Assembly: GCF_030704535.1 (NCBI RefSeq)
Contig: NC_081811.1
Coordinates: forward strand, 2,806,501 to 2,870,500
DNA length: 64,000 nucleotides
From: Vitis vinifera
Lineage: Eukaryota > Streptophyta > Magnoliopsida > Vitales > Vitaceae
Direction of reading: 5' to 3'
Part shown: in pieces, positions 10,620 to 56,970 of the stretch
Position numbering within the stretch: the first letter of the stretch is position 1
How the letters are laid out: each line of letters begins with the position of its first letter
Program-made: the position numbers and the translations under genes
Notes under the pieces: model-generated
The model's database searches: none
Told to the model about the DNA's origin: nothing
What the model saw: only the letters and a program-made list of their open reading frames with translations

Positions 10620-11011
10620 TAGTTTTAAAAGGCATGCTTTAAGTACGTCTGGCTCCCTTTTGGGCTCCCTTTTAAGTACGTCTGGGCTCAAGGCACAACT
10701 ACTCCCTGGTTATAGCACCTCGCTTGCCAAGACATGCACTTTATTGTAGAGAAGCACCTTGTTGACTTTACTCTTCCTTTTCAAACACTTTTATTCTTGA
10801 AATTTCTGATTGTACATTGAAATTTATATAATTTCATTGAATGTTTCTTTTAAATGTTTGGAATCTTAAATTTTTTAGTCATTGGATTAGATTTTAAATC
10901 ATATTTTATGAAATTGATATACATCTCATGTAGCATTTCATCATGTTGTGTTTTGCCCTAAGCTGTAGGCGACTTTTACTCCTTAGGTGCGCCTTGCGCC
11001 TTTGAAAACTA
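10620..11011. mobile_element. degenerate MITE-like element with ~18-bp inverted ends
   Basis: The left end reads TAGTTTTAAAAGGCATGC and the right end, read on the other strand, is TAGTTTTCAAAGGCGCAAG, so the two ends are imperfect inverted repeats. The interior has no coding capacity and holds a short local duplication of CTTTTAAGTACGTCTGG-like sequence at 10628-10690. A similar CTCACC sits outside both ends, but it is not a clean target-site duplication. The superfamily is not assignable. Confidence 0.5.
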
Positions 11012-11767
11012 GGCCCTCACCTTTTTCTCTCCTTCCATATGGTCAAGAATAGCGATAAGAGAGTAGCTCTCCAAGCTCTCTCTCTTTTTCCAACAAAGAA
11101 TCCATGCCAACTCAGGAGGGCATTCTTCGCTAAGAAGTGCATTACCCACTCTATTCCAAATAGAGCAAAAATCAACTCCACAGGAATACTGGTGTCAAGT
11201 GGTCAACAAAGATATGATCAACTGAAGTTTTGAGACTTACCAGCAGAAATGCCATATTGTTAATACAAGGTCCATAGGCCGCATTATAAAAGAATTCTGT
11301 GGACTAAGAAGAGCCACTGAAGTTTTGAGACAGCCTCATTGGCAAAGTGCCTGAAGCCTCCCTTCTATACATCCTTGTCAGGTTCAAGGCACCACTTTTG
11401 TGACACCATTTTGTCCAGCTAACTTATACCTCAAAGAAACTCACCCATGCATATGGTCTCTGAGAATGGAGTCCACATTTTTCAACACCCACAAAGCCTA
11501 CTACTTCAGTCTTTCCAGTGTCTCCCTACCCTTATACCTGCTTGGAGTTAAAACTATTTAGAAATGTTATGGGGTTCAAATTCAGATATAATTCTTGGTC
11601 TTGTGTAGCTTAGATTTTTTGTTAACCCAGTTGATTCCAGGCATCAGAGGGAGGTTCTCCAAACAGACTAAGTAAAGATTTCTCTACCACATTTCAACAA
11701 CTAACACACAAAATATACAGAGTTCAGTGAAATCTGGCATTCTTTCTTTCACTATTTTATTAGCAAC
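11012..11767. other. intergenic sequence
   Basis: No credible gene is present. The open frame at 11039-11233 has no family resemblance that I recognise. Confidence 0.4.
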
Positions 11768-12415
11768 AAGAAATTTCAACCATCAACCATCCCTTCCCAG
11801 TCAGTACTATCTGGAAGTCCTGGGCTCCAACCAGGGCTAGTTTCTTTGGTTGGGAGGCGGCTTGGAACAGACTACTCACCACTGATCGCCTAAAGAGATT
11901 TGGTTGGAACATCCCCAACAGGTGCTTCTTGTGTAAAAATGAGGAGGAGTCTATTGATCACCTTCTCCTGTTTTGTGAGAAGGCCAGAATGTTATGGTAT
12001 CTAACCTTCTCCCTTTTTGGGGTGCAATGGGTGATGCACTCCTCTGTGAAAAGGAATCTCCTAGGATGGTATGGATCTTTTGTGGGCAAGAAAAGGGAGA
12101 AAGCATGGAAAACTGCCCCCCTTTGCCTAATGTGGACTATTTGGAAAGAAAGGAATAGAAGAGCCTTCGATGATGTGGAAAGAAACGATCAAGATATCAA
12201 ATCCATTTTTTTGTACACTTTTGTGAATTGGGCTAGGGTATATATTAAGGATCATACTTTATCGTTGTTTGATTTTGTAAACTGGTTAGCCACCAAGTAA
12301 GGGTCAGAACCTTTTGTTTCTTGATCCTTTGTATCTTGGTATACTTCGTGTATACTCTCTTTAGCCTTTTGGCTTTTAATGAATTTCCTTTATCTATCAA
12401 AAAAAGAAATTTCAA
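11768..12415 (+). mobile_element. 5'-truncated LINE retrotransposon with target-site duplication
   Basis: The insertion (11780-12403) is flanked by the perfect 12-bp direct repeat AAGAAATTTCAA at 11768-11779 and 12404-12415. Inside, an uninterrupted frame from about 11806 to 12300 encodes the C-terminal zinc-binding region of a plant non-LTR reverse transcriptase polyprotein. Recognisable pieces are SFFGWEAAWNRLLTTDRL, the Cys/His pattern RCFLCKNEEESIDHLLLFC, and MWTIWKERNRRAF. After the stop comes a 3' UTR ending in CTATCAAAAAAA, a short A-tail as expected for a LINE. The bulk of the element (endonuclease and polymerase) is missing, as in abortive target-primed reverse transcription. Intact duplications and an unbroken frame suggest a fairly young insertion. 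It cannot move by itself. Confidence 0.88.
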
Positions 12416-14839
12416 GTAGGCCATCAACTTAAGACCACTGAAGTCACTTGATCAAAAAAAGGTCTTATTTGAGTTCAAAGCAAGTGGTGAGAGACAGATT
12501 GCCATTGCAAAAGCCAACTCTTAAGAAGCAGCTTTACTTTAAAGTGACAGTTTTTTTCCCTTATAAAGCTCCATCATGTAGGCATGCCCTTGGTTGCCTT
12601 GAGAACTAATGATTTGTTTGAAGATTGATGTACTAACCAAGGATGAAAATTGTTGTGCTAATAGAAGCTTTAATGCAAACAATGTTAGTTCAAAACACAA
12701 AGATAAAACAATCCACACAAAGATACACAAGGTTTTAACATGGTTTGGCCAACCATGTCTACATTCATAGGCGAAAGGGAATCATTCCACTATACCATAA
12801 AGAATATTACAATGAATAGAACTAGATACAACTATTAGGTTTTCAAAATATCTCATGTTTCCCCACTCCTTGTATCGACACCCTACTTTACCCACTCATT
12901 GTATCGACACCCTGCACCACGAGCCCCCTCGCTTCACCAAGTGTCTCTCATTCTTCCTCACATCTTTATCTACCTTGTATTGTCATTATAACTCTATCTT
13001 TATCTCATAACCTTTTTTCTTCTTGACCTAGAATATTTATGGAGATATTCTTAATAACTTACCTTATTCTATAGGGAAATCTAATATTACAATAACATAT
13101 CACCTTAGGAAATATTTTATACAATATTCTTTATAAAACGGAATCTATACCAATTAAGAATTTGGGACACTTTCCAACAAAAATAAATATATCAATTACT
13201 TCCTACAATAAGTTCGCATAAAACATTGACAAGTGACAGCAGAAGTTCTATTATCAAGATATGAATGGTTTGAGTAAGTCCAGTTACTCTTGATGACCAG
13301 ATAATTGATAGTGATCATTGTTGAATATTGAGTATATCTATTGCTTCCTACAAATTATATACATCACTATAACTTAGATGGGTAATCAGAGGAGCTCAAC
13401 CTCATTCAAATCTGAGGGATGCTTTGAAACTAATCTCGTCCCTCCCTTTTCTCACAATTCCCTCTCCTCTTCTCCTCGTCACTCACATACTCAAAACTTT
13501 GTTTCAACTATGCACTTTGAAATGTGCCCAAGACCCAGCTCACTTGGGCCTGTCTTATCATCATATCATATCCGCACAGAAGGAAAGAAGAATGTATATG
13601 ACTGAGCAAGGAAAATAAAACATGGAAAAGAGGAAAAGCGAAAATGGCTTTTAGTTTTACTGATGCAATCATATAAGTTCCTTGAAGTAAATAATATTTC
13701 TGAATAAAAAGAGAAATATATAGAGCAGAATTCAAATAGATACCCATTCAGTAGGAAAAGAAAGCAATAATTTAACAGCAGAAATTAGGTACACTTGGGT
13801 CCTGCTTTGCTCAGTTAAGATGCCTTTTTTTCTTTTTCCTTTGAGGCCATTAAGGCTATCTGTCTAGTTGGCAGAGTAGTTCCATTGGTGCAAGGAGGAA
13901 GGTGATAAGGAGAATGGCCCCATGGGCTTCTTTTGGTGCCTCTACAAGGAGCAGAATCAGAGAGTTTTTTATCATGTAGAACATTTAGACCTAATGCTTA
14001 AAACAAATTTCCATAAATCCCAGTTTTTATGGTTGAGGAACTCTTAGGAAGAAGTGATCTTCTATTTCTCAGATTTCATCAAGAGTTTGGGAATGAGTTA
14101 AAGCATTCTCAATGCCAGATCTCATTCTTTGCTTTTCTCTTTTCCTTGGTTTACAAGGTTCCTTGTGTACTTCCCTTTTTTTTTCTTCTTTCTGATAGGC
14201 AAACAAAATTATATTAATAGAGCCTCCTTACTTCATATGTCCTAGGGGTTGTACCCTCTCTTTCTTGGCACCTTAAATACATGTTTGTGTGTTTGTGTAT
14301 GTGTATGTGTATATTCCTTATTTTCCTACAAGAAACAGCTTTACTGATGAAAAGAATGACAATGTGACAATATGTACATCCCTCAAAGTGCCCTTTTAAA
14401 ATTAAGAAGGGTGGGATTATCCTCAATGTTTAAAGCTCTCAACTGATAAAATTAAAACATGAAATATAGGATCTAAATCAATCAAATTTTTTTTCCAGGA
14501 AATCATACGTTTATTCACCAAACAATTGATATTCACATCCAACGGTAGTTTATCCGCAATAATTTCATCCATCAAGCAGAAAAGTCAGGATCTTCCCACA
14601 AATCCATCCTTCGTTACTGGAAACTTTAGTAGAAACTAAAACTAGTACAAAATCAAGTATTCCATCATAATATAACAAAATAAACTCATGCACCACCTCT
14701 AAAACAAGTGAATTTTGTTATAGAATTTAAAGGCAATGATCACCTACTACTATATAATGAAGCACTAAGAAAATCTTACATGAAATACAGAATAGTTCTT
14801 ATCCAAATTATTCATGAAAATGAAGTAATGGAAGATCCA
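12416..14839. other. intergenic region with LTR-like relics
   Basis: At 12700-12950 the motif AACATGGTTTGGCCAACCATG followed by a CTACATTCATAGG stretch resembles a repeat common in plant Copia-type elements; a related GTGGTTCGATGATC motif recurs near 40812. A short direct duplication built on TTGTATCGACACCCT lies at 12877-12913. At 14170-14216 a T-rich run followed by CTGATAGGCAAAC looks like an antisense retroelement tail. No gene is supportable. Confidence 0.45.
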
Positions 14840-15379
14840 TCATTTATGAATATAACTTTTCAAAATGTCGCTTCCCTGTTCTAGGTTTGCATTCCTCCGC
14901 CAATTTGCCACTGCTCTATTAACAGTAGCCTCCGCTTCACGAATTTCCTCAGTAGAGAACTTGTGTTCTATGATTCCCAACGGCCCTGGCTGGAGTACCT
15001 TAACCACAGTTTCAATCTCTTGCTCTAACTGCCTGGGAAAAACAAGAATCAGAATGTGAGCAGTGATGAAATGAAAAGCATCATCAAACACGAAACTTCA
15101 TTTCAGTTGCAAGGAACGGAGAGAAACTTCATTTCAATTGAAATCTTTCATTTCTTCAGAATGAGTAACCATTGTACGAAAATACCTCACATGCAATTAG
15201 ATGTGAGTTAAATTGATTTGTTTATCAAGAAACTGAAATTTTGATGAGTGATGGATCAAAATCAACCTCAAAAACCCTAGTGCAATTCAGCAACTCTAAT
15301 GAAAAGAGGAAGAAGAAGAGAACCTGAAGAGGCCGGAAAAGGGCAGAGACTTGCCGAGTCGTGAAAAAGAAACTGGCAT
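14840..15379 (-). CDS. small conserved plant protein of unknown function (82 aa)
   Basis: Two coding exons on the minus strand, 15379-15324 and 15032-14840, join through an AGG codon to give 82 residues. The donor is AG|GTTCTC and the acceptor TTTTTCCCAG. The N terminus (MPVSFSRLGKSLPFSGLFR) has Arg, Ser and hydrophobic residues but no acidic ones, so it could be a mitochondrial or plastid presequence. The body carries a highly ordered-looking segment, QLEQEIETVVKVLQPGPLG then IIEHKFSTEEIREAEATVNR and WRRNANLEQ, probably two amphipathic helices. I recall very similar uncharacterised proteins across flowering plants (Arabidopsis At5g51510 by memory), which makes this a real gene despite its size. 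No enzymatic motif is visible. Confidence 0.8.
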
Positions 15380-15539: not shown

Positions 15540-17096
15540 GGGCTTCACTTCCCATTCAGCCTTTATTAGGGTCCTGCACACTGAAATTGATGCCTACCAA
15601 AACCTGAGACCGATCACAATATGTCACATATACAATTTAATTTCATTGCTTTTTACCTTCTTTACATCGCATTCCTTTGAATGTTAATTCGATTCTTTTT
15701 TATTTTGATCTCATTTGTTTGTATTCAGTTTCATTTGTTTGTACCGCCATTAAATAAACTAAATTTCATCATACACTTTCAATGATCGGGATTATAAGCT
15801 CCGTGAGTACCGAATCGGTATCCTAACATTTTCTAAATTATTAAAATGGATTTATAGTTTGTTTCTTCCACACATCTAATAACAGAGAGGGTGCAAAAAT
15901 TCAGTAAGGTACCTCTTTTGTAGCTCTATGAAAAGAAGATGGTTGTATTCCAATCACTAATCAGTAAGCTGAAATTTATAGAAAAATAACTAAGTAAAAA
16001 AAAACCCCTAATAAGTATTCGAATGGACCCGCATTATGATATTCAATGATATTAATTGTGAGTGGCAGGCACCCAACTGCATTGTGCCCGCCACAGTTCT
16101 ATGCTTGGCACCCCCACCAATCTGTAGGCACTCATAGTGAAGGCCCCATTCTGATTAGGGGCAAGGCATGCCTAAACACTCTTGAGTAATTGCCCCCTTA
16201 ATCTCATCATTCAGGTTCAACAGTTTTCACACTTGAACAGTTATGATCCATCATTTGGCACACTACATGCATGATGCAACATAATTATAGCAGGTTGCCA
16301 GATAGATTTTGTCACAATCCGCTTCCAATCGTGTAAGTATTATTGTTTCTGTGCCTAAAAGATCCTTTTAAACTGTCTGTTGTGTTGTCTAATACTGCCA
16401 GGAAATATTACTTATAGCCCCTTTGAATTATTCCCAAACTATAAGTCCCCGACCCTCTAAAAGTCAATCTGCCACTATGTCCAATATAAATGTTGCATAA
16501 GAGGCTTTCTGCTTCTTAGAATTTTTCATGGCATCAAAGAATTTCTCAATAAGATAATTGTTTTAGTTATTTGCACTTTAAGTCTCGGGGGCTTTAGATG
16601 TGAAATGATTGTCATGCCCTTATAATGGGTCTTGGGGTGTGACAGATTTGGTGGGATTTTTCCTGAAATTTGTGCAGAAACAAAGCAAACTTAAAGGGTG
16701 TTTGAGAATTGGAATGAGAAGGCTGACTTAGTAACTTCAAACCATATGCTTAGGAGACGCCTAAGTCCGTGACATGATGCAACATGCTTCAGAAGTGTAG
16801 ATGAGAGGAAGAATGACTAAAAATCAGCTGAAAAATATTATGCTTGAATGGCTGTGTGTATCTACTTCAAAGTTCTAAAAATTTCTCACATACTTCACAC
16901 ACACCTTTAGAATACAACTCTGATTGAGTGCCTGCCTTCAAGTCTCTCCATAAAAAGTGAAAGGGAGTGTTGTCACTCAGCACACAGCAACACAATCAAC
17001 TCTCAAAACTATCAATCTGGCATTAGACACCATCACACTAGCTATGCTTTACACTCTTTTTTACTTATCAACACATACATGGTCATGAATCATGAA
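15540..17096. other. intergenic sequence
   Basis: No gene is visible. A CTTAGTAACTTC...CGCCTAAGTCCGTGACATG stretch at 16729-16777 resembles a segment near 46290-46375, so both may be relics of the same repeat family. Confidence 0.4.
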
Positions 17097-21239: not shown

Positions 21240-24200
21240 CTTCTCAAAAACACTGACAAAGATTCAGCCAATTCAGCAAGTTCAGCCTTAGTACTCTTAC
21301 ACTAAAGGACCTGCACCATCCCCATCAATCCCACCAACAATGTAGCTTCTCTGTTCCAAGAAAATTAAACTGTTCTCAACAACCGATCTCATGTCAGGTA
21401 CAGACCAAAACATTGATTTATTCTTCTGCTGCTTTATCTCTGAAAAAAAAAGAGAGAGAAGGAGAGAAAGCTGGAGTGAGGTGAAAGCCACATGAAACCA
21501 TGCAGGATTAAAGGGTCTTGATGTGTACTTTAATTGAGTGTTTATTATTTGCTTGGGCTAAAGTCAAGGGAATGTAGGTGTGCTTGCGCTTTTCGGTGAA
21601 AGGTAGTGAGGAAAATGGCTTTTCTACATGGTTTTTGTTTTGAGAAATCGCAGGATTTCTGAAGTGTTGCAGTGCTTTTAGGGGTCCGTAATCATGGCTA
21701 GTGAAAGCTACCCACTTAAAGATTACTCTAAAATAACTCTATATTATGTGTAAAGCTAACTAAAGCAGAAGCTAATAGAATGATCATCATGAGAACCCCC
21801 CACGAAAAAAAAAAAAAAAAAAAAAACCAAGAAAAACAGTTTGCCATATGTGTTTCTTTATGTTACAGATGTTGAATGAATCATGGCCTAGGATTTCATG
21901 GATCAGATAGTAATGATGGCCCCATCAACTCCTGCTTTTGGGTGGTTAAACAACAGGAGATAAGAAGAAAAGCTCATTCATCTCAACACAAAAACTTTGG
22001 TGCTTAGTAGACCGCATATTTTTATGGTGGTCTGGGTTTGGGCTCTGGACATGGAATAATAAACAATAAACCCCAATGCCAGCCATGGCCATATGCTACC
22101 TGTAAAAGTAAGCATACTTCATCAAAATCTACATTTTTCAAGCTTTGAATTTCATGAAGATTCATTTGGACAGTGAGACTGAAACTTGAAGAATGAATTA
22201 TGAGATGTGCCTCATGAAAGGTGGCATAGTACTAGTACTAGAAGGAAAGTTAATGTTGGCTTCCTCAACAACCCCATCTCTTCCCCTGTTCCCTACCATA
22301 ATTTGTGGACCCAGATGGTGGGCTATACTTCTTTTTTTCTTTTTTCTGTTTTTTTTTTTTTTATTTTCAGCATTTCATAGAAGATGTAGAACTATATAGT
22401 ACATATAATATATGAGGGAGTGTGAAGAGTGTTTTTTTCTTCTCTTTTTGGCCAAGCATATATACCATGTAGATGTGTCCACATATTTTGTGACATCAAA
22501 TCCAAAATCTAGGTGTGATTGACAAAAAATGGGAGTGACAAAAAGTAAAGCAATAGGCAAAAGGTGTATTTTTTTTCCTCACGAGGGTTAAAGCCTTAAA
22601 GGATATGGAATCTTTAATGGAGGTAAGCAAAGCAGGAGGGCACAATTATGGTGTAGAGGGACCAGGTGAGCCCACCCTTTTGAAGGGTATTCCATAGAAA
22701 CGTGACACTATGAGCTCCAATGCATTGTATCTACTGTGCAATGCCCAGATCAAATGCTTGGGTGCAGCACCTCTGCTGATCTGTTGCGACTGCAAGCCCT
22801 GCAACAAGCATGAACTGAGAAAGGGGTTGTGTATTATGGTTATGGTTCTTATTCAAAACCTGAGGCCCCGTTTAGCAAAGATTTTTATAAAAAAAAAAAG
22901 AAAATAGGAAAACACTTTGGATAACCAGAAAATAGAAAACATTTTATAGGGTTAGAAAATAAGTTGAGGGAGGCAAGAATACTAATTTATTTTGGGGGGA
23001 ATGGGAAGAAGGGGGAGAGGAATAGAGCAAAAAATCAATTGGATAATTGTGTGGTACTTACGATTTCCTCCAAAACCAAAAGTAAAGGTTGATACGCTCG
23101 TAAAAGAAGATTTTCAAAGAACAGTTGTTTGAGTTGTTTAAGTTGTTTTCACCTATTTTCTAAAAACAGTTTTAAAAAATAATTATATAAATATGGATAA
23201 TAATTAAAAACAAAACACTACATATAAAATTACTTTTAAAATATAGAAAAAAAAATAAAAATAGTTTAGGTTTTGAACAAATTTTTGTTTTAAATAAATG
23301 TTTTAAAAAATAGTCACAAGCAAAACCTAAAAATGAAGAAAATTTTGAAGCAAATGGAGGCTTATTAGAAGCTCATGACTAACCTAAATGGGCATGGACA
23401 AACTAAAAATCCATTTCACCGTAAATTCTATTGACAATTCTCATAAAACTATTTTTTGTCAAAAATTACAAAATAAACTTTTAAGTCTCAAAAAAACTGA
23501 TCGAAAAAGACTCTTTATCTCATTTACCCTATTTATAATCATCATAAGTTTGTTTTATTAGGGACAGCTTTTATTAGTGATAACTTTGTGACACTCTTTC
23601 CACAAAGAAATAAAAGCATAAAAAAGTCGTCGTACTATAAATAAACTTATATCCACATTCAATAAAAGTTTATTTTATAAAAGAAAACAAAGAACCTATT
23701 TAACCGACACCCAAATTTTTACATTAAATGATAATTTAGCATGGTATCAGATCCTTACACGACTTAGGTGCTAAAAAATTTTACAACGAATTAATCACAT
23801 TAATGAATAGGGAAATTAACTTACCAAACAAAGAACATTTCTTTCTAAAAGATTGAAAATGAACATTGATACAAAAGTTGTAACACTATGGATGATAAAT
23901 GGGTTAAGGTAGATTTAGTCATTTAGTGAATGAGCATTGTTTCTTGGTTCAAATTTGAAATAGTATTCAATGTTAATGATGGCAATTTTTAGTTGTAACT
24001 ACCATTTTTCAAGTGAGGTAAAAGTGATTCCAAGGTGAATTGCATTTGTTTTGGATTTTCATACTTTGACTGCCCCCTCCCCATGGAGTTTTGGAAAAAA
24101 GTTACTTTTGAAATCTCAATGAAATCCTTAATTCTCTCACATAAGGCTACATTGGTAGTTATTTTCCTTTTATGAACCCCAGGCATAAAGTTTGATGTTG

Positions 24201-25910
24201 TCAATAATCATACTAGTCCATGATAAAAATTTAAATAAATAAATAAAATAAAATTTCTCAAACCAAATAATTTCAAGAAAGCTATCAAAATGGTTTGACA
24301 TCATACTTAATTAAGAGTGATTCTCGTAAAAATGTTTTTAACAGAGAAAATACATAATTTTTGTGAAAAAAAAAATATTTTAAACATTAGAAAACAGTTG
24401 AAACCCATTAAAAAATAATTTTCAAATAAATTATTAGTTTCAAAATTTTAATTCTCAAACCTAAACTTTTTTTCATTTTGGGTTCATTATTTTCATTCAT
24501 TATATCAAATGTGCAATTTTTGCTTTTACCATCCCTAATTTTAAAGTACATTATTTTAGGGTTAAAAAACCTAGACTACAAATAGACTTGTACTTGAAAA
24601 GAAGAGAAGAAAGTGTTTTCCTTTTCAAAATATTTATACCTAAGGAAAACTGTATTTAATCCTAAAAATCATATCTAGTCTTGAGATGTCATTGGAGCCT
24701 ATTAAATGGAGTCTCAATGAGTAGAAGTTCACGTGACAATGATGAAGGATGGATTTATAGAAGAAGCATGTAGATATATAGGGAGGAAGGAATTCATCTT
24801 TCATTATCTAGCTACAATCATTAAAAGTAGTCTCGCTAGGGCCAAGTAAGCAAGTGACACTCGTGATTATAGAAGTCTCTGTCGGCCACACTAGTACATA
24901 AACGCACGCCTCCTCAAGCCCACAAATTGCAAACATTTTTAAATTTGAAAATATGAAATTGTTGGTAGAAAATACAAGGAAAATTCCGGTGGTACTTGGT
25001 AGGATTCCATATCAAACGGAACTTTCATTTTCGATTCCTTGAATAAGGGTTCTGTCGAGGCGTAATAATGTAGGTTTTAAATCCGGTGATGAATTATCGT
25101 AATAATGACTTTTAGAACAAATCTATGAGATATGATGTCAAATATTATAAAAAGTTTGACTTATTGTTATTGGCTTATTGGATATCTATTGGTTTTTAAA
25201 TAAGATGATCAAAACTCGATCTACAAATTATATATTGAAGTCAAAAGTTACAGGTACAAGTCACAAGAGCATCACGTCAAATAAAGGATTATTGTGGTAA
25301 AAAAATATTCACTCTTAAACCTAGGTTCTAGTGATGAATTAGCCGAATGATGAATTTTATAGTAGATCCGTTAGACATGATATCAAATGTCCTTGAATAT
25401 AAATCAGTGAGATCGAAATGGGATAGGATTACACATGTGACACTACAAAAAAAAAAAAAAAATCATTCCACATCATAGTTTTACCCGAAACTTTAATAGA
25501 TATGGTGGGAGAATTTGAATACTAGTGACATAGGATGCTAATGGAATCAAGGCATGAAAGAAGTAGGATTTGTTTTACTTTCAAAGAGGGAAAGATTTGG
25601 TCGTTTATGGTGAAAGAGGGAAGTCTTGGTTCAAAGGTGCAATAGTAGTAAATGTCAGGCTCCCTAGGCCTTTTCTAATGTTAATGATGGCAATTTGCAT
25701 AATCAAGTGAAGTTAAATAAACTCAAAAATGATTTTAAGATGCATCGCATTTGGTTTGAATTTCATATTTGACTAAGCATTAGGCAAGGCCCTTGAAAGA
25801 AGGAGAGTGCTTGAAAAGTCACCTTTACAATTTCATGGCTTTTGTACTCCTTTTTGGACCCTGATAGATTGGTTTTTCAAGGGTTGAAATCCCACTCTTT
25901 CAACTTTCAC
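21240..25910. other. intergenic region, AT-rich
   Basis: The first 250 bases are probably the leader and promoter of the SETH6-like gene (minus strand). A GCCCCGTTTAGC end at 22864 followed by A/T-rich sequence with internal AAAACAGTTTT-like inverted repeats up to about 23330 looks like a decayed MITE. No reading frame in this interval resembles a known protein. Confidence 0.45.
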
Positions 25911-26154: not shown

Positions 26155-26206
26155 AAACAGTAAAAATTAATTTTTTTTTTTTGATAGAAAAACAGTAAAA
26201 ATTAAT
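26155..26206 (-). mobile_element. 18-bp retroelement-tail insertion with 17-bp target-site duplication
   Basis: AAACAGTAAAAATTAAT occurs at 26155-26171 and again, perfectly, at 26190-26206. Between them are only 18 bases, eleven T then GATAGAA. On the minus strand the insert reads TTCTATC plus an A run, the same CTATCAAAA tail that ends the LINE at 12403. It therefore looks like a target-primed insertion that copied almost nothing except the poly(A) tail. Confidence 0.7.
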
Positions 26207-28396: not shown

Positions 28397-31300
28397 CTAG
28401 TTTGAACGACGAACCTCACCACCTTGTCTTGTGCTTCTGCTACTGCTTAAAGGGGCTGAACTCTGACCTGACAGTTGGACGTCCGAAAGCGAAACAGATC
28501 CAGTCTGGGAGAAAATCAAACCAACTGAACTACTGGTGGTATTTCCAGATGAAGGCATTCTGGTTGAGTGTGAATCCTTTTTTGACCCTGAAATGAAGTC
28601 AGGCCGCAGATCTGAAGATGAAAATGAAGGGGCCAGAGTAGCCAGTGAAGACCCCACAGGGTATGGAGCAACTGGCATATCAGTGAGAGAAGAAGCTGAT
28701 GGACTGTATCTCATGTTCCCCAGTGGATGATCGAATTTACATGTGGACCCAAACTTGCAGTACCCATTTTGCAGATAGAAAGTGCAAGGTTGCACCCCCT
28801 GTTCATTAAAGATATGAAGATCAGATAAAGCATTAAAAACAGCATTCTTAGCTAAATAGACAGAACATTGAAATATTACATATATGAGTATAGGGACAAG
28901 GCAGAAACAAAGCAATTCATCATTTAGGTTTATGATATGCTATTAGCAATTAAAATTAGCTCAAACAATATACTTATCAGATAAATTCAATGGATATTGT
29001 TAAGCTACCAACTTTCCAAAGAGCTTAAGTTGTTAGGATATTGGCCCAAAATGTATATCATGCTAAGACCCTCCATCACATACAAGTATGCAGACAAACC
29101 TAAAGCTTAAGCTGTTAAGACATGGACTGAATGAATATTAGGCTAACAAATATAAATTCCCTAAGATAAAGAATACAAAAGGCCAGAAGAACACAAAAAA
29201 AGGGCTAGAAAAACAAAAATAAATAAACAAATAAATAAATGGGATTGACAATTTAACTGTCTCTTTTACTATTTATATTTATATCATCGCCACATTGATA
29301 CTATTTGCATTGAACTAAGTAGACTTGGGTACATGTATTCTTCACAAAAATTGGATTTCCTATATAAATAATATAATTGATATGATAATATGAGGTTAAT
29401 GAAGGTATGATAACACCATGTAACAGATAAAGTTCCTGGACATGAAGTGATACAAAATCAAATTCCATTTGCATCTAAGCACCTCAGTTAACTCCACAGC
29501 ATAAGCAACCACATATCCATACAGAACAGCCTTATCATGTCAAGCCACTACAAAAAATACATTTGACCTACATGAGATCAGTTAAATGCACTGAAAGATG
29601 CATTACATGTATTTTCCTAATGTGGATCAAATTTCTTCAATGTTATGATGACCCCATGTGGAGGTGTAGCTGATTCCACACCAAATTTGTACTTGTACCA
29701 AAATAACTTAACACAATAAAATTAAAGTCTCAAGTCCTAGGTGTTTATGGTTGGACATGAATCCGTTTTTGTCATTACACTCTATTTAAGGTCATAGCTT
29801 TCATTAAATCATAAGCCATTTTGTCCTTTATGCAGTCCCAACTCCCATTCCTTTTGGTCTTTCATTGTCCTTGTCCCTGCAGCACATTTGACAGTTTAAA
29901 AAGTACAGTATTATCCCTATGTCCTAACTAGTAGAATTAATGGGCTTTGTTGTACACAACCCCAAGCAAGCTTTATTTCCGATTTCGTTCTTTCTAAGGG
30001 AACTCATTCCATCTCAACATCTTGGTTATATCCCCCTATTCTATGCTTACCTTATAATTTTTTCATTGATAGCCAACACTTTTTACCAGAAGCATGGCAA
30101 GCTTTATGTCTTGCCATGAATTCTATTTTAGAAAGTTGCCTCCAAAAATTATCCTCTGGACTTCACAGCACAAAAATATTAAAACATGCCCATTCATTGC
30201 ACCAGTCAGCTGCATTTGTTGGAGAAGAGTTAGAAAACCTGGTAACTAGGTAAGGGCAGGAGCTTCATTCCAATGGAATCATTTTAGGATCACAGCCAAG
30301 ACGCTCAAGTAAGAAAAGTAGCACACAGGTTAACCATTCTTCCATAAAAAAATGAAGCTTGACAAGAAACAATATTCCAAAAACAGGTCCTTTCATCCAA
30401 AATAGAATATAAACATCCCTTTCAAAAGAGAGGGGGAAAAATCTAAAATGACTTGGCTAGTTGTAGAGCATAATGTTAGCATTGTCATCCATGAAAGGGG
30501 AGACATTCAAGAGAACATCGTGAATATAGCAAATTTTAATTAAAATAATGTGATCATTTTTTTTCAATCAGTATATAACATGTTATTCTGTAGAAATTAT
30601 TTTACCAAAATACTAAATAATTATGAATTGACTCATCATGTGTATCATCATTGTTGAATTTTAGTGTTTAACAGACTAGTGGCTAGTGATAGGTAGGGGG
30701 AGAATGAGAGGTGGGAGAGGAAAAGGGTTTTATTAATGTTGATGTTACACCGATACTAATGCCCTTACGATATACATGAATACTAAAGGAATAGTTAGGC
30801 TTATGGCCAATGCATGTAGAGGTGCCCAGAACTTTGGCTTCTAAGATGTTGATGGAAATATAGCTCCATACTTATTCAAGTGAATGAAGTATGGAAAGCC
30901 AAAAGCCTCAATCTGATATCCAGATGAGATAAATTTTGAGCCTATATGTGTAGTCTTTGGACCACCACAGAACATTTATCTATACTGGATGAGGATCGTT
31001 TCCAAACATTAGATGCATAGTACTTCCCCCAGATCTCCCATGCCAGCATGGCAGCACCAGATATATAATCAAATATTTAATGGGCCTAAATGTTGATATG
31101 ATGTACTGGGAAGTGTCCTAGTTCCTCCACAAACAAACTTCACAGATTCAAACCTTAAAATTTGAATCCATTAATAGAAACCTCAAGGGAAAATCCATGA
31201 ATCAAGATTTAATGAGAAAATGGTTTCTTCAATGAACAAAGAATCATATAATGAGTTGACAATGATAAAAGATTTAGTCCCCTTGATGCAGCCTTGTGCA

Positions 31301-33900
31301 TGAAGAGTTCTTGTGGCATATATTTCGCAGGCATCAAAAGTTCTTGCAGTATTGGAACTGATATCCAACTTGGATTAATTTCATTGAATAATTTCCAAGA
31401 TCAGGTCAGGGTCCAGCAAAAGGATCCTAAAGTGCTTCATATACATAATCTGCAGAGCTAAAATCCCCCAGAACAGGTTGGGATCAATCCAATGGATCTG
31501 AATGTGCCCTATACCCCGAGGATGCTGAATAATAAGCAGAGGATATGACACCATCTGAGGAGCAACTTCATATTCAAAATAGGTTTTCATAGACCACATA
31601 AAAGAGGTATCATGTTCATCTCTTAGAACTCTTATCCAGATGCTAGTCATCTGAGACAGGAAGGGGTACACTAAATGCAGCTATTCTAGTCTGGATATCA
31701 GCTTGCAGGACTGTAGGACAAATTTTATGGCACATATGTGCACAGATTGTGCTTTCATATAGGATGTGGGAGAAATGGATCCTGCAAGATCAAAGAACAA
31801 CGGTACATCAACCCATTCTTGCTGAGTGTAGTTTACAGTTCAAATGCCTGGAGATGCAAAAAATGGCTGCTCAAGTAAAGGATAGTTAAAGCAGACTGCA
31901 TCAGAAAGGTGCTAGCAAAGGCAATGTCGATGACTTCAGATGGATCTTCCACTCTCAAAGCCACATGTAGTGTTGCAAGGCAGAGTAAGATGGCTGTGAA
32001 AAATTCTGAACCCAAAAGGATATGGAAAAGCTTGATCACCACTGGTTGCAAAAGAAAAAAGAACTTTTTTTCCATGCTTGTAACTTGGGTTGTCTAATCA
32101 CAAAGCATGATCCTAAAACCATGTGGAACCTTTCAAGTTTCATTGACTTGATTTTCATTCCTGGAAAAGAATCATACCACTTCAAGCACAAAGATTAAAT
32201 CCATTCATACAATATCTAGTCAAGATATTTTTCCTTATAGGAAAGAATGGGAAGGCATTCATGCTTCAAAAGGAAACCTAACCCAAGTATTGTTACAACC
32301 TCAAACAAAGTTCACAAACTAGAGTAGCTGATCTCATCACTAGGATCAAATTATTCTTGATTCTCATCAAAAACCATTTTTTATAGGCTTTAGCTCCCAA
32401 ATTTTCCAAACTAAGATCTGATCCTATCAAAATCTGTTATCATGAACATTCATCAACAGAAATTTGAAGCCAACCAAAAACATATCCAGATTCCATAGTG
32501 CATCAACCATCACAACAGCTCACACAAGGAGCCTTGTTTTCAGAAAGGGAAAAAAAGGATAGCATTTGAATTACCATTCATAATGAAGAATTGAAACTAT
32601 TGCTAAGTAACTGTGCATAAATTATAAACATACTCCTCATAAAAGCAGGCATAAAAACAAAGAGTGAAAAACATTAAATAAGGGGGGAAGGGGGGAAGAC
32701 ACCATCAAATTATTGGTCCTCTGCCCAATCATTCACTAAAGATGTTTCAATAATCCATCAAATAAACAATAGCTGTTTGTTTCCCCTGAACACCAACAGC
32801 ATTAAAAATGCAGCCATTAAAAAAAATTAAAATTACAATTTCAGATAAATAAATAATTGTGATTGCTTTAGTTATAACTTATATGTCTCATGCATGAGAC
32901 AGAAATTAACTGTGGCATCCACCTCAATCCATGAGTCAAACACACCAGACAAGGCATATGCCCATAAAACACTTTGCTGCATTCACACATCCATCTCCAA
33001 CAACACCTTAAAGCCTAGTCTGTGAATCTTCACCCAATTAAAAAGGTCACTATATTTGCACCTTTCATGTGAACAGACAAGAAAGTGAGGTGATTAAAAT
33101 GGGAAATGTTAGCAAAACATGGTGATATTACTCTAGAGTTGGAATGTTCATTCTGCTGGATTCCTCATGCAGCTAACCATGTGGCAGATATGTTTAGTAA
33201 AACAGGGAGCCAATCGGTTGATTTCTTTTGTAGGGGATTTTCTACCCTCATAAGTTTTCAAGTTCATATATATAACCATTTTTCGATGCGTATTTCCATT
33301 AATATTTAGAGTAGATAATTTTTTCTTTTTTTCTTTTTATTTTTTTTCAGAGTCATGTAGTTGGTTCTAATTGGGAGGAAGAATTTTTCATCCATCTTAC
33401 AAAGGATAGAAATAAAAAAGAAAAAAGGAGAAAACTTCCTCAAGGAAACTTTGCTTGTGCTTCATCTCTAATTGATCTTTTTTTGTTTATTACATCATAA
33501 CCTATCTGTTATTGAGATCCTTTCTAGGAGAGTCCGCATTTGGAGGGAGAACTATCTTTAGGAGAGCTTTTGATGATAGTGAATTCATGGACCAAGCAAT
33601 TAAACATTCCTGCTTGTATCTCTTTTGGGATTGGGTTAGAGTGTCTCTTGGGGATTGCTCCTTGTCGTTGTTAGACTTTGTCAATGGGTTAGACTCTATG
33701 TAGGGCGCAGTTGCTAGTTTTTGTGCCTTTGCGCTGTTTTTTTGTGGCCTTTTGGCTGCTACTTTGTATGCATCATCTATGCTTTCTTGGTTTGTTTTTT
33801 TTTTTTTTTTTGATAGGCACATGAGAGAATATATTAAAAAGTGCTAGCAAAAACTTTCTTGTTTTTCCTTTCACTGATAATATAATTTTTACTTACCTAT

Positions 33901-33946
<46 letters not shown>

Positions 33947-36449
33947 GTATCCTAAATTTCAGTGTGTGACAAATTAAAGAAGTAGACATATAACCACATC
34001 TAACACCCACACCCAAACTTATGCAATAGAGCTTGAAACCATGACTTTGATATAACTCTGTTGTTCCTATCAAAAAAATATAACTCTGTTGTACTTTAAC
34101 AATTGAGCTAACAGCATCTTCCACTCTACTCGCATTTTCTCTTAAAAATGACCACTTCTTTAAATATAAAAGGCAAATCAATTTGGTCGGGTCATTAAAA
34201 GAATGGTAATTTAAAAACATCAAATCTCAATAGCTTCAGCAATACATTAAAATGGTTAGAAAGATACAGTATAAAACTAGCTTCCACATAGAGTAATCTG
34301 TCCTCAATACTGAAGACCATGTTATACAATTTAGTGTCTAGAAATGAAAACGAAAAAAAAAAAAAAACAAACAGCAGGAGCATATTTGTACTTTTTGAGC
34401 AGTTTTGGACTAAGAAAAATCAAAATTGAAGCCAAATTATAAAATAAAGTAACAAAATGAGTGAATAAGCATACCGGACGTAGAGGTAAACCCAAGGGGC
34501 TGAGGACACAATTTGTTTTTGGGACAACCCACTCCCGAGGGTGATGATACCTGCAAGATGATCCAAATTTACAGTCTCCTGTTCTCAAGTAGTACTGACA
34601 TTCTTGTTGGCCTGGTCTCTCTGGAAACACTTGTTCCTTCTGGTTACTGCTTGAAGGGCCAGCAGAAGAGGGAAGCGATGCATAGGGTCCTGCAAGTGTA
34701 TGTGTTGAAGGTAGCTGCGTGACTCCATACACAGAACCAGCGCCTACCGTGGGTTGAGCACCAGGAGAGAGTACAGGGCTTACAGGTGTCTGCAACATAT
34801 AAACTAACATTATGAGAAACATATGCATCTTTTACAACTCAATATGAAAAAGAAAATTGTGTAACATACCGAATAAGGACTCCAACCCGGAATAGGAACC
34901 ACTCCTGGGGGGAACAGAACAGGACCATAAGGGCCTTGCACATATGAACCAGGTAATACTGGAGGCCTTGGCACCCTCCAGCTAGTAGATGTACCCCCAT
35001 ATTGTGTAGGTGTAGGAACAGAAGGAGATTGCACCGTCGGATAAAATGTAGGTGCAGATGCTGGCAATGATGTGCCAGCTGGTTGAGGATGATGGAATTT
35101 ACATGTTATACCAAACTTGCACTGCCCCGTTTTCAAATAGTAGGAGCATTCTTTCTCACCCTGTTGCAAAATTTCCAATTCATAAACATAAGCTAAATGG
35201 AAGTGTCCATTCCCAAATTACAACCATGCTGATTTAGTAAAACGAATTTGATTAGAAAAGGTGAAGAATAAACCAAATCCCAACCAGTCTTAGTGGGTAT
35301 CCGTAAATATTTAGTGACACATGGCTCATGGATCCACCACCATTTCTTGGATGGTGAAACCTGCAGGACGCACCAAATTTACAGGTCCCAGTCTTCAAAT
35401 AAAACTGCATATTTAAGGAATAACTATACGATTAATAAGTATAGGATAATAAGCCTTAATAATAATGCATAATACAAGTAGATGAAAACAATTCTAGCAG
35501 ATCCAAGGAATCTATATTGGTAGAGATCAAGCATTCCATCCCCATCCAGTATTTTATATTCAGTCAACAAACAACAACATACCTGGCATGCTGGCTCCCC
35601 AATTCGCTCTGGATACTCTCCTCCTCCGGATCTTAGTGTAGAAACCTGAGTAGTATTGCATCCAAATTACATTGGGAAAACTCCATTTTCACTTAACGTC
35701 TGTTTGGTTTTCCGAATTGGTCGGGAAAATAAAGACCATGCTTAAGAACAAAGCCATTCCGGCATTTTCTTTTCCATTCTCTAGTTTCCGCTAGAACCAA
35801 GCAGATTGCATTATGAATTACAAATATCTTGTTTCTAACAAAATGACATGAAGATTGGGACCTCTCATGAAGACACAGCCTACTTAAAACACTCAAATTG
35901 TTGTCAAGACCCCCATAAATCCCACATCTAATTACACCATAATCTGCTAAAGCTGAAAGATTCAGCTGAATTTAACACCCGAAATCAAACAGCAGCCTCA
36001 AAAAACAGGCGTCAAGACCTACTCTATTGATTCTAATGCAAATGATTTGTACAAATAATTGATGATCAAGGGTTTACCGAGCTGCGATCGCGAGGATGGT
36101 TGTACCGGCACCTACTACCAAACCCGCAAAACCCGGTTTTCATATAGTAGACACAGTCAGCCACACCAGGCCGCTCTGGGTAGGATTCCCTGCTGCTCAA
36201 CCCCAACCGCCACATCGACTCTATATTTCAGAACAAAATCAAAGAAAACCCCAATCAAAGCTCCGCATTCTCACAAACCCTAGAAAAAATATCACCTCAC
36301 AACACAAAGCCAAATGAAATGAAATGAAATTCAAATGCAAAACAAATCAACCCACCTTCGAGCCCCGACACCGCCCTGACCGGACTCCATTCCACCGAAG
36401 GATCCGATTGGGACCCATCCCTCGCCGGAGCCCGCCCGTACAACTCCAT
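28397..36449 (-). CDS. ZFN-type protein with five CCCH zinc fingers
   Basis: Seven minus-strand coding exons (36449-36356, 36220-36078, 35645-35583, 35404-35285, 35160-34870, 34789-34475, 28798-28397) stay in frame and give 475 residues. Five fingers of the form C-X8-C-X5-C-X3-H are complete: C54-H73, C99-H118, C145-H164, C301-H320 and C347-H366. The three-plus-two grouping with a Pro/Ser/Gly-rich spacer (about 165-295) is typical of the plant ZFN1 group, which bind nucleic acids (RNA or DNA) and regulate gene expression. The second finger is split by an intron just after its first Cys. The Ser-rich C terminus has no further domain. The last intron is 5.7 kb and has collected retroelement fragments. 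The start is the ATG beginning [13 protein letters not shown], after which exon 2 continues with MWRLGL, a family signature. The closest Arabidopsis relative is probably At2g47850 (from memory). Confidence 0.92.
28799..33050. other. large last intron of the CCCH gene, first part
   Basis: This lies inside the 34474-28799 intron. No exon is needed here, because exon 6 joins exon 7 in frame to complete the fifth finger region. Open frames at 31183-32097 on both strands are short, biased and match no family I recognise. Confidence 0.5.
33090..33250 (+). mobile_element. LINE RNase H-like fragment
   Basis: A short frame encodes [19 protein letters not shown] followed by SKTG. It matches the C-terminal pattern of the RNase H-like domain of plant non-LTR elements, where a WIP(R/H)xxNxVAD motif is usual. 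Only this piece is recognisable. It lies opposite in orientation to the host CCCH gene, within its intron. Confidence 0.6.
33520..33790 (+). mobile_element. 3' fragment of a second LINE
   Basis: The frame ending at 33703 encodes [16 protein letters not shown] and [10 protein letters not shown], parallel to RRAFDDVERNDQDIKS and LSLFDFVNWL in the LINE at 11768-12415. The 3' UTRs also share a GCCTTTTGGCT segment. This is a diverged relative, truncated further at the 5' side. I see no clear target-site duplication. Confidence 0.7.
33782..33861 (-). mobile_element. possible short antisense retroelement tail
   Basis: A long T run followed by TGATAGGCACATGAGAG is flanked by CTTTCTTG at 33782-33789 and 33854-33861. 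On the minus strand the insert would end in GTGCCTATCA plus an A run, like a LINE 3' end. The duplication is only 8 bp, so support is weaker than for the other two small insertions. Confidence 0.45.
33903..33946. repeat. (AC)n(AT)n compound microsatellite
   Basis: Fifteen AC units are followed by about seven AT units, in the last intron of the CCCH gene. Confidence 0.95.
34050..34092 (+). mobile_element. 13-bp retroelement-tail insertion with 15-bp target-site duplication
   Basis: ATATAACTCTGTTGT occurs at 34050-34064 and again, perfectly, at 34078-34092. The 13 bases between them are TCCTATCAAAAAA, that is the CTATC plus A-run terminus seen at the 3' end of the LINE at 12403. It sits in the last intron of the CCCH gene. 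Confidence 0.7.
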
Positions 36450-44053: not shown

Positions 44054-53282
<9,229 letters not shown>

Positions 53283-54445: not shown

Positions 54446-56970
54446 ATGGCAGTACGCTTCAAATCTTCTCTCTCCACAGCCCTCCTCTCTTCTTCTTCTC
54501 TCAATTACTTTCTCTCTGCTTCACGCAAACCTTCGTTTCGATTTTTCCATCTCCGCTTTTCCTCACTTTCTCGTACTTTACCGCTCTTTCCTCGCCGCCA
54601 CGTTCACACACTCAAGGTCCTCGCCATGGCTGAACGGAGCATGAAGACAGCATCGCATTCTCACAAGTACACCAATCGTCTCGCTGCCGAGCACAGTCCC
54701 TATCTTCTTCAGCACGCCCATAACCCTGTGAGTAAAACTCCTATCTTTCTCTCTTTTGTTTGGTTGCTGAGAAATGATAGGACAAGCAAAGAAATTCTTG
54801 AATTTCGGATGTTTTAGGAATTAGTGGGACTGTTTGGAAATTGGAAGGAGATAAACACAGGATTTTTCTTTTTCTTTTTTTCTCAGCTACCAAACTGGGA
54901 GGATTTGATTTTTGATTGGGATACAATTTGTGATTTTTTTTGTTTTAATTTAATTTGAAGGTTGATTGGTATCCATGGGGTGAAGAAGCTTTTTCTGAAT
55001 CACGAAAAAGAGACGTGCCAATATTCTTATCAAGTAGATTTTCTTTCCTTTTTCTCTTCTATTTACTTTCCCTATTGCCTGTTTGGTTTTTTCTAATGTA
55101 TCAGGAACTTATTTCTGATGTATTCGGTTATGGTTTTGTCTGAAGTTGGATACAGCACCTGCCACTGGTAAGAATTTTTGCTCCATGTGAATTGCTTAGT
55201 TTTGGTTTTTTGTTTTTTGGTCTTTTAAACTCTGTGCAGCATTTCATGGTGAGTGATGGGTGGAAACCATTGGTTAGGTGTCATGTGATGGAGGTGGAGT
55301 CTTTTGAGAATGAAGGGGTTGCAAAATTGCTCAATGATTGGTTTGTTAGTATTAAGGTGATCATCAGATTTAGTTGTTTCATATATGTTCTTGTGTGTGA
55401 TCTCATTTGAAAAAGCTTATGCAGTATTTGATTCTTTCTTCTATTATAACATCTACCTGTTACAGGTGGATCGAGAGGAGCGGCCTGATGTTGATAAGGT
55501 AAAGTAGTAAAATAGTGATACCAATAATATGAACTATGAAGATGTCTTCAGCATTTGTTCTACTGGTTTTTTCTCTAACTTTCTGTTGGGTTTTATTCAG
55601 AAAAAGAAAAAGATACAAGTTAAGCCAAAAAAGTTTAAAATATTAAAAAGGACAATCATTCTTTACATCATTTGTCTACTTTCCTGACTCTATCCATGAC
55701 CCAAAATAAGAAATATTTTTAATTCGGAGAACTCTCCTTGTATATTTTGATTACAATTGTGCAGTAATTAGTAGATTGTTTTGACTTGTTTGAAGCTGCT
55801 AATAAGAGAGAAGGTAGGATTCTCTAGTTTAAATGCTGCTAAACTGATTCATGATGTAGATTGAGTTGTTCTTCAGAGGGGCACCTGAGTTTGTCTTAAA
55901 TATAGTTTTTAAAGTTGAAGTTGAATCCAGTTTAAATCAATCAAACAAGGAAATAATGAAGATCTGTTTTGTTTCGTTTCTTTTGTCACTCTTCAGTTTG
56001 CTAACTTTCAAAATTGTTAACTGCTAACTGTTTTCAAGTAAGGCTGAGAAAATTGTTTCATCTCTCCAGGTATACATGACATATGTGCAGGCTTTATATG
56101 GTGGAGGGGGTTGGCCATTGAGTGTCTTCCTTTCACCTGATTTGAAACCTTTGATGGGTGGAACTTACTTTCCCCCGGATGATAAGTATGGAAGACCTGG
56201 GTTTAAGACTGTTCTTAGGTGAGGACATTTTCGTCCCTAAACTTTAATTTCTATGGTTTTGAAATTTTAGTGACAGTGGATATTCCTTGATTGTTATGTG
56301 AGATTTGTAACTTTGTAGAATGTCAATTTTTGTGTTTGTCTTGGCCATTCTCTTATACCTGTATTCTTTCAGAAAGGTGAAGGATGCTTGGGAAAATAAG
56401 AGGGATGTTCTTGTTAAGAGTGGAGCCTTTGCCATTGAACAGCTGTCAGAAGCATTGTCTGCAACTGCAAGTTCAAATAAATTGGCGGATGGGATACCAC
56501 AGCAAGCATTGCATCTATGTGCAGAGCAGGTGGGGTTTTACTGCAGTTCACAAGTACTGCAGTTCAGTTGTTCTCTGTCTCTGGTGTTAAATTTTTTTTA
56601 TTAATTGAATGTGAATATGTTTCAAGAGACATACAAGAAAATGATGTATAGGACAGAAAAAACAACTGTCTTGATCCCCATCAGAAAGAAATATTAGCTT
56701 TCTTCAGTTTTGAGGTACTTATCTAAAATGCTTTATAGAACTGTTGTTTTAAATGCAAGTCAGAGCCTTAATAGAACTGTTGTCTGCTGGTTGCTACGAT
56801 CTTGAATATGCTCTTGTGCTGGAATAGCTCGGCTTACTTACCTTTGGGTGAAAATCTTTGAGTAGGCCAGGCTCAAATTTATTCTGCACATTCATACTGT
56901 TCCCAGATCAAAGTTCCATGTTCTTCCCACATGCATGCTATGTGAGCTTTGTTTTTTCCCAAGCATGTGT

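What the first reader, a model, noticed from the sequence alone, without database searches (positions are those of the whole stretch)
34050..34092. Second tail-only insertion: 13 bp (TCCTATCAAAAAA) with a perfect 15-bp duplication
This is an independent site, in the opposite orientation relative to the window and in a gene intron, with the same anatomy and the same CTATC-A(n) terminus. Two in 64 kb suggest that extreme abortive target-primed reverse transcription by this LINE family is frequent and may be a notable source of short direct repeats in the genome.
Basis: partly seen in the sequence, partly recalled or inferred. Interest (0 to 1): 0.72.

Follow-up and report, generated by a model that had tools for sequence, protein, structure and literature searches.

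The report
Tail-only LINE insertion in grape intron
In what is predicted to be an intron of a grape gene, a 13-base scrap that reads like the last few letters and A-tail of a LINE jumping gene sits between two identical 15-base repeats, likely because the element's copying stopped almost as soon as it started; this is probably an extreme but ordinary case of a known process.

Summary
The companion site also holds: a 17-bp repeat around TTCTATC-A11, minus strand, 26206-26155. The genome is Vitis. A donor-type element lies in the window: a 624-bp, 5'-truncated L1-type LINE fragment (11780-12403) with a zf-RVT domain, 12-bp flanking repeats and the same CTATC-A(n) end. Perfect repeats of 12 bp or more around inserts of 60 bp or less flank 2 of 4 CTATC-A(6+) runs but 2 of 262 other A-runs, and those two are one AT-rich place. 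The spacer does not resemble its neighbours, so a decayed tandem duplication is unlikely. A possible third short tail insertion (33816, minus) has a repeat no better than many A-runs show. The site is 397 bp from the predicted donor splice site of a 5.7-kb CCCH zinc-finger intron, inside a weakly tRNA-like stretch. Best reading: target-primed reverse transcription that stopped after about 13 nt. That this is frequent genome-wide is untested: the genome search did not complete. New member of a known kind.

The parts
34050..34064 (+). first copy of the 15-bp direct repeat (target-site duplication, 5' copy)
   Evidence: sequence
34065..34077 (+). 13-nt insert TCCTATCAAAAAA: LINE 3' terminus plus A6
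   Evidence: same CTATC-A(n) end as the LINE at 12394
34078..34092 (+). second copy of the 15-bp direct repeat (target-site duplication, 3' copy)
33951..34113 (-). candidate tRNA-derived SINE-like stretch that received the insert; box A to box B spacing is 42-43 without the 28 bp and 70-71 with it; its ends are my estimate
   Evidence: weak: one other place in the window matches the (recalled) boxes as well, and no flanking duplication of its own was found
28799..34474 (-). predicted 5.7-kb intron of a CCCH zinc-finger gene that contains the insertion
   Evidence: splice sites inferred from reading frames, no transcript data
26155..26206 (-). companion tail-only insertion: 17-bp perfect repeats around TTCTATC-A11
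11768..12415 (+). 5'-truncated L1-type LINE fragment (zf-RVT): 624-bp insert 11780-12403 ending TTTATCTATC-A(n), flanked by AAGAAATTTCAA at 11768-11779 and 12404-12415; donor-type family
33782..33865 (-). possible third short insertion: 60 bp ending CTATC-A17-C, flanked by a 12-bp repeat with one mismatch, next to or inside a + strand L1 3' fragment (from about 33560)
   Evidence: the repeat is not better than chance for A-runs in this window

Best explanation
The 13-base insert at 34065-34077 has the same CTATC-A(n) end as a LINE fragment in this window and is flanked by a perfect 15-bp direct repeat, and it most likely arose when a Vitis L1-type LINE began target-primed reverse transcription and stopped after about 13 bases. 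Inferred steps: the LINE endonuclease nicked the minus strand at 5'-TTATAT/CAAAG-3'; the free end annealed to the poly(A) tail of LINE RNA; reverse transcriptase copied the A-tail plus about seven bases; the second strand was cut 15 bases away; the short cDNA was joined and both strands filled in, duplicating the 15 bases. Shown: the anatomy, the shared terminus, a second site with an 18-nt insert of the same make-up, and a 624-bp LINE copy with the same end. Not shown: the RNA origin, the empty ancestral site, and the age.
For: Perfect 15-bp repeat directly abutting the A-tract. The 624-bp LINE fragment with zf-RVT (E 3.5e-22) ends in CTATC-A7 and has 12-bp flanking repeats. Independent site at 26206-26155 with the same order of motif, A-run and repeat. 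Control: perfect flanking repeats of 12 bp or more, insert up to 60 bp, at 2 of 4 CTATC-A(6+) runs against 2 of 262 other runs, Fisher p 0.001; at 9 bp or more it is 2 of 4 against 4 of 262, p 0.0025. Label permutation gives 0.0014 for CTATC and 0.037 for any 5-mer. The spacer matches its upstream and downstream neighbours at only 4 of 13 bases each. A maize survey says LINEs appear more numerous and/or active in grapevine than in most plants studied (PMC2774510, passages), and LINE insertions are described in grape introns (PMC3058033, passages).
Against: Only five to six non-A bases tie the insert to the LINE, and the base before CTATC varies between tails (C or T). The nick site does not match the human L1 TTTT/AA consensus (recalled). 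Other short-gap direct repeats in the window have spacers unrelated to LINEs, so another repeat-forming process acts here too. The 12-bp repeat around the 624-bp LINE is not strong by itself: of 647 A(5+) runs, the scan with inserts up to 3 kb lists 12 rows with repeats of 12 bp or more, 8 of them unrelated to CTATC. Of 8 CTATC-A(4+) places, only 3 have such a repeat. The repeat at the possible third insertion (33816) is matched or bettered by 61 of 262 other A-runs within 400 bp, 15 of them with inserts up to 60 bp. No empty allele or outgroup was seen. Two of the four CTATC-A(6+) runs are the sites that prompted the finding, so the p-values are partly post hoc.
Confidence: 0.77

Rival explanations
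1. Staggered double-strand break repair: two offset nicks left 15-base overhangs, fill-in duplicated them, and a 13-base filler, by chance or copied from LINE tail DNA, was added at the joint (patch-mediated repair).
For: The window has other short-gap direct repeats with spacers unrelated to LINE ends at 10638, 15092, 15711 and 56735. One paper says that analyses of natural insertions in humans and plants hint that small tandem duplications arise by error-prone repair of breaks made by nearby nicks (PMC8355091, passages, which cites a rice study not read here).
Against: Filler would have to be the LINE terminus with its A-run against the 3' repeat at two independent places; 2 of 4 CTATC-A runs against 2 of 262 other A-runs are so flanked.
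Confidence: 0.15
2. Decayed simple tandem duplication or slippage of a 28-bp unit.
For: The repeat-spacer-repeat arrangement equals about 1.5 copies of a 28-bp unit; a likely case of decay exists at 12870 (10 of 14 spacer bases match the upstream flank).
Against: The spacer matches the upstream and downstream flanks at only 4 of 13 bases while both 15-mers are identical.
Confidence: 0.03
3. Trans-mobilised RNA: the tail of a SINE or other transcript that shares the CTATC-A end was inserted by the LINE machinery, rather than the LINE's own RNA.
For: Thirteen bases cannot tell a LINE tail from a SINE tail with the same end; LINE machinery is known to move SINE RNA (recalled).
Against: The one CTATC-A(6+) end with an identified coding body in the window is a LINE; no SINE with this end was recognised, though none was searched for outside the window.
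Confidence: 0.05

Closest known systems
Tail-like human retro-insertion: poly(T) stretch in NF1 exon 25 (PMC3219598, passages seen)
   Same: A retro-insertion reduced to little more than its A-tail; the authors suggest a severely truncated Alu, L1 or a processed pseudogene
   Different: About 120 bp of poly(T) and human; here 13 bp that still carry a terminal LINE motif, in grape
5'-truncated plant L1-type LINE copies (the 624-bp copy at 11780-12403 in this window; grape intron LINEs, PMC3058033, passages seen)
   Same: CTATC-A(n) end and flanking repeats in the window copy; LINEs in grape introns in the paper
   Different: Truncated within the last 7 or so bases of the element rather than in ORF2
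Patch-mediated break-repair duplications in rice (Vaughn and Bennetzen 2014, seen only as a reference in PMC8355091)
   Same: Short direct repeats made at staggered breaks (content of the rice paper recalled)
   Different: No requirement for a LINE terminus and A-run in the spacer

Membership tests
L1-type LINE insertion by target-primed reverse transcription | target-site duplication of about 7-20 bp (range as given in PMC3219598) | tested here: met
   15 bp perfect
L1-type LINE insertion by target-primed reverse transcription | A-tail directly abutting the 3' copy of the duplication | tested here: met
   A6-A7 then repeat
L1-type LINE insertion by target-primed reverse transcription | 3' terminal sequence shared with an identified LINE | tested here: met
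   CTATC-A(n) as at 12394 with zf-RVT; only five to six informative bases
L1-type LINE insertion by target-primed reverse transcription | endonuclease-type nick site rich in T before the nick | tested here: inconclusive
   5'-TTATAT/CAAAG-3' read; the Vitis consensus is not known here
L1-type LINE insertion by target-primed reverse transcription | empty site in a relative or another allele | not tested
   The genome search unanswered in 11 tries (last)
L1-type LINE insertion by target-primed reverse transcription | RNA intermediate | not testable with these tools
   needs a retrotransposition assay
Tandem duplication of a 28-bp unit | spacer resembles the sequence next to the repeats | tested here: not met
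   4 of 13 on each side
Patch-mediated break repair with filler | spacer not confined to a retroelement terminus plus A-run | tested here: inconclusive
   at these two sites the spacer is the LINE terminus plus A-run, which argues against it but does not exclude copied filler
tRNA-derived SINE (target sequence) | A and B boxes at tRNA spacing | tested here: inconclusive
   spacing 42-43 when the 28 bp are removed, but 4 mismatches in 23 and one other window place as good

The most novel reading that the evidence does not exclude
Grape L1-type LINEs often abort within the first 20 or so bases of reverse transcription, leaving a hidden class of 25-35-bp insertions (tail plus duplication) that repeat-masking would miss and that seed short direct repeats and length variation in introns.
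Probability: 0.25. Interest if true: 0.6.

Novelty: new member of a known kind. Interest (0 to 1): 0.35.

Why it matters
If common, tail-only insertions would be an uncounted output of LINE activity: too short for repeat annotation, yet each adds a 10-20-bp direct repeat. They would give a direct read-out of how early reverse transcription fails, and a ready source of presence/absence markers in grape introns. As a single site it is an extreme but expected product of 5' truncation.

Tried and rejected
Tandem duplication: disfavoured by flank comparison. Chance: disfavoured by simulation and the A-run control. Known RNA family at 33700-34300: Rfam gave 3 matches, all in or across the (TG)n stretch and far below their gathering scores. 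tRNA gene: ARAGORN found none in the window; with relaxed thresholds it gave low-scoring, inconsistent calls on both the joined empty piece and the filled piece, so I do not lean on it. Other copies of the SINE-like stretch in the window: the self-comparison gave only short or simple-repeat matches. DNA relatives in viral contigs: none for the flank pattern and none confirmed for the LINE protein. The 33816 tail as a third proven insertion: I first counted it as support; a check showed its repeat is not better than chance for A-runs, so it is now only a possible case, and my confidence went from 0.80 to 0.77.

Literature, open-access library only: for very short or tail-only LINE insertions, searches returned 0 papers, one search returned 1 (a mouse provirus paper), one search returned 11 (listing seen; passages of one, PMC2912911) and one search returned 7 (listing; passages of PMC3219598). 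I saw no plant report of tail-only insertions in those listings, but no claim of absence from print is made. Searches were broader; only their listings and the passages cited were seen.

Full report
Observation. At 34050-34092 the window reads ATATAACTCTGTTGT, then TCCTATCAAAAAA, then ATATAACTCTGTTGT, with no mismatch between the copies. One A at the boundary can belong to either tail or repeat. The companion site is on the minus strand, 26206-26155: a 17-bp perfect repeat around TTCTATC-A11.

Host and setting. A conserved NPH3 exon in the window is 100% identical, over the 88% of the query that aligns, to Vitis vinifera and V. piasezkii proteins, so the genome is Vitis. Exons with CCCH zinc fingers lie on the minus strand; reading frames and splice signals predict an intron from 34474 to 28799 (5,676 bp; the script printed 5677, counting one exon base), with the insert 397 bp inside.

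Donor-type family. An open frame at 11764-12297 carries zf-RVT, a zinc-binding domain of reverse transcriptases (E 3.5e-22); among the 120 relatives listed of 146, most are unnamed and several are named Vitis proteins. This copy ends TTTATCTATC-A7 and has AAGAAATTTCAA at 11768-11779 and 12404-12415 around a 624-bp insert: it looks like an ordinary 5'-truncated L1-type insertion with the terminus seen at the two short sites. The 12-bp repeat alone is modest evidence: among 647 A(5+) runs, 12 rows with such repeats and inserts up to 3 kb were listed, 8 of them unrelated to CTATC.

A possible third case. A second L1 3' fragment begins near 33560 on the plus strand (56% amino-acid identity over 46 residues). 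Next to or inside it lies a minus-strand CTATC-A17 tail; a 12-bp repeat with one mismatch would bracket a 60-bp insert. A check of the same search on other A-runs found repeats as good or better at 61 of 262, 15 of them with inserts up to 60 bp (no complexity filter), so this one is not established. A degenerate tail (CCTATCA-GAAAGAAGA9) at 14199 has only a weak repeat (13 bp, two mismatches, 194-bp insert).

Chance and control. Complex direct repeats of 15 bp or more with 5-40-bp gaps number 5 in the window and average 0.02 in 100 order-3 Markov simulations. Because three of the 5 have non-LINE spacers, I used the A-runs as an internal control: of 266 runs of six or more A's on both strands, 4 follow CTATC; perfect flanking repeats of 12 bp or more with inserts up to 60 bp occur at 2 of these 4 and at 2 of the other 262, and those two are one AT-rich place read on both strands. 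Fisher p is 0.001 (0.0025 at 9 bp or more: 2 of 4 against 4 of 262); permuting the labels gives 0.0014 for CTATC and 0.037 for any 5-mer. The motif was drawn from the sites, so these values are partly post hoc; the LINE at 12394 defines the same motif independently. Of 8 CTATC-A(4+) places in all, 3 have an exact repeat of 12 bp or more.

Against duplication. The spacer agrees with the 13 bases upstream and the 13 downstream at 4 positions each, unlike the repeat at 12870 (10 of 14). Removing the 28 bp leaves a minus-strand stretch in which a box-A-like and a box-B-like element lie 42-43 bases apart instead of 70-71, as in a tRNA-derived SINE (box strings recalled). That would make the short form ancestral, but the boxes have 4 mismatches in 23 and one other place in the window does as well, so this is a hint only.

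Mechanism. The order repeat, LINE end, A-tail, repeat is what target-primed reverse transcription leaves. The inferred primer strand ends 5'-TTATAT at the nick; copying stopped after the A-tail and about seven bases. A precedent for an insertion reduced to a tail is the poly(T) stretch of about 120 bp in human NF1, read by its authors as possibly a severely truncated Alu, L1 or a processed pseudogene (PMC3219598, passages). A maize survey took care to tell SINEs from severely truncated LINEs and says LINEs appear more numerous and/or active in grapevine than in most plants studied (PMC2774510, passages); LINE insertions in grape introns are known (PMC3058033, passages).

What is not shown. Frequency in the genome, an empty allele, and age: the genome search did not complete in 11 tries (last). 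The rival of break repair with filler stays open at low weight, since the window holds other short-gap repeats with unrelated spacers.

Verdict. It is a very short member of a known kind.

Noticed in passing
window 33782-33865 (-), beside or within a + strand L1 fragment from about 33560: A LINE-like tail (CTATC-A17) lies antisense at the 3' end of another L1 fragment; the bracketing 12-bp repeat (one mismatch) is not better than chance. The (CA)n array at 33903 follows a CTATT-AA sequence and may have grown from an old A-tail.
   Followed up: partly
window 14176-14199 (-): A degenerate LINE-like tail CCTATCA-GAAAGAAGA9 lies antisense just after a + strand LINE-like coding remnant (13892-14092), a second case of tail next to tail.
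   Followed up: partly
window 10638-10685, 15092-15136, 15711-15743, 56735-56783: Perfect 13-15-bp direct repeats with 7-23-bp spacers unrelated to LINE ends; candidates for break-repair duplications.
   Followed up: partly
window 49781-50017: 81-bp unit tandem array, 2.9 copies, 87% matches.
   Followed up: no
window 23969-25696 (-): A 20-bp perfect repeat (AAATTGCCATCATTAACATT on the minus strand) whose copies lie 1,688 bp apart, with an A5 run at one copy: possible larger insertion.
   Followed up: no
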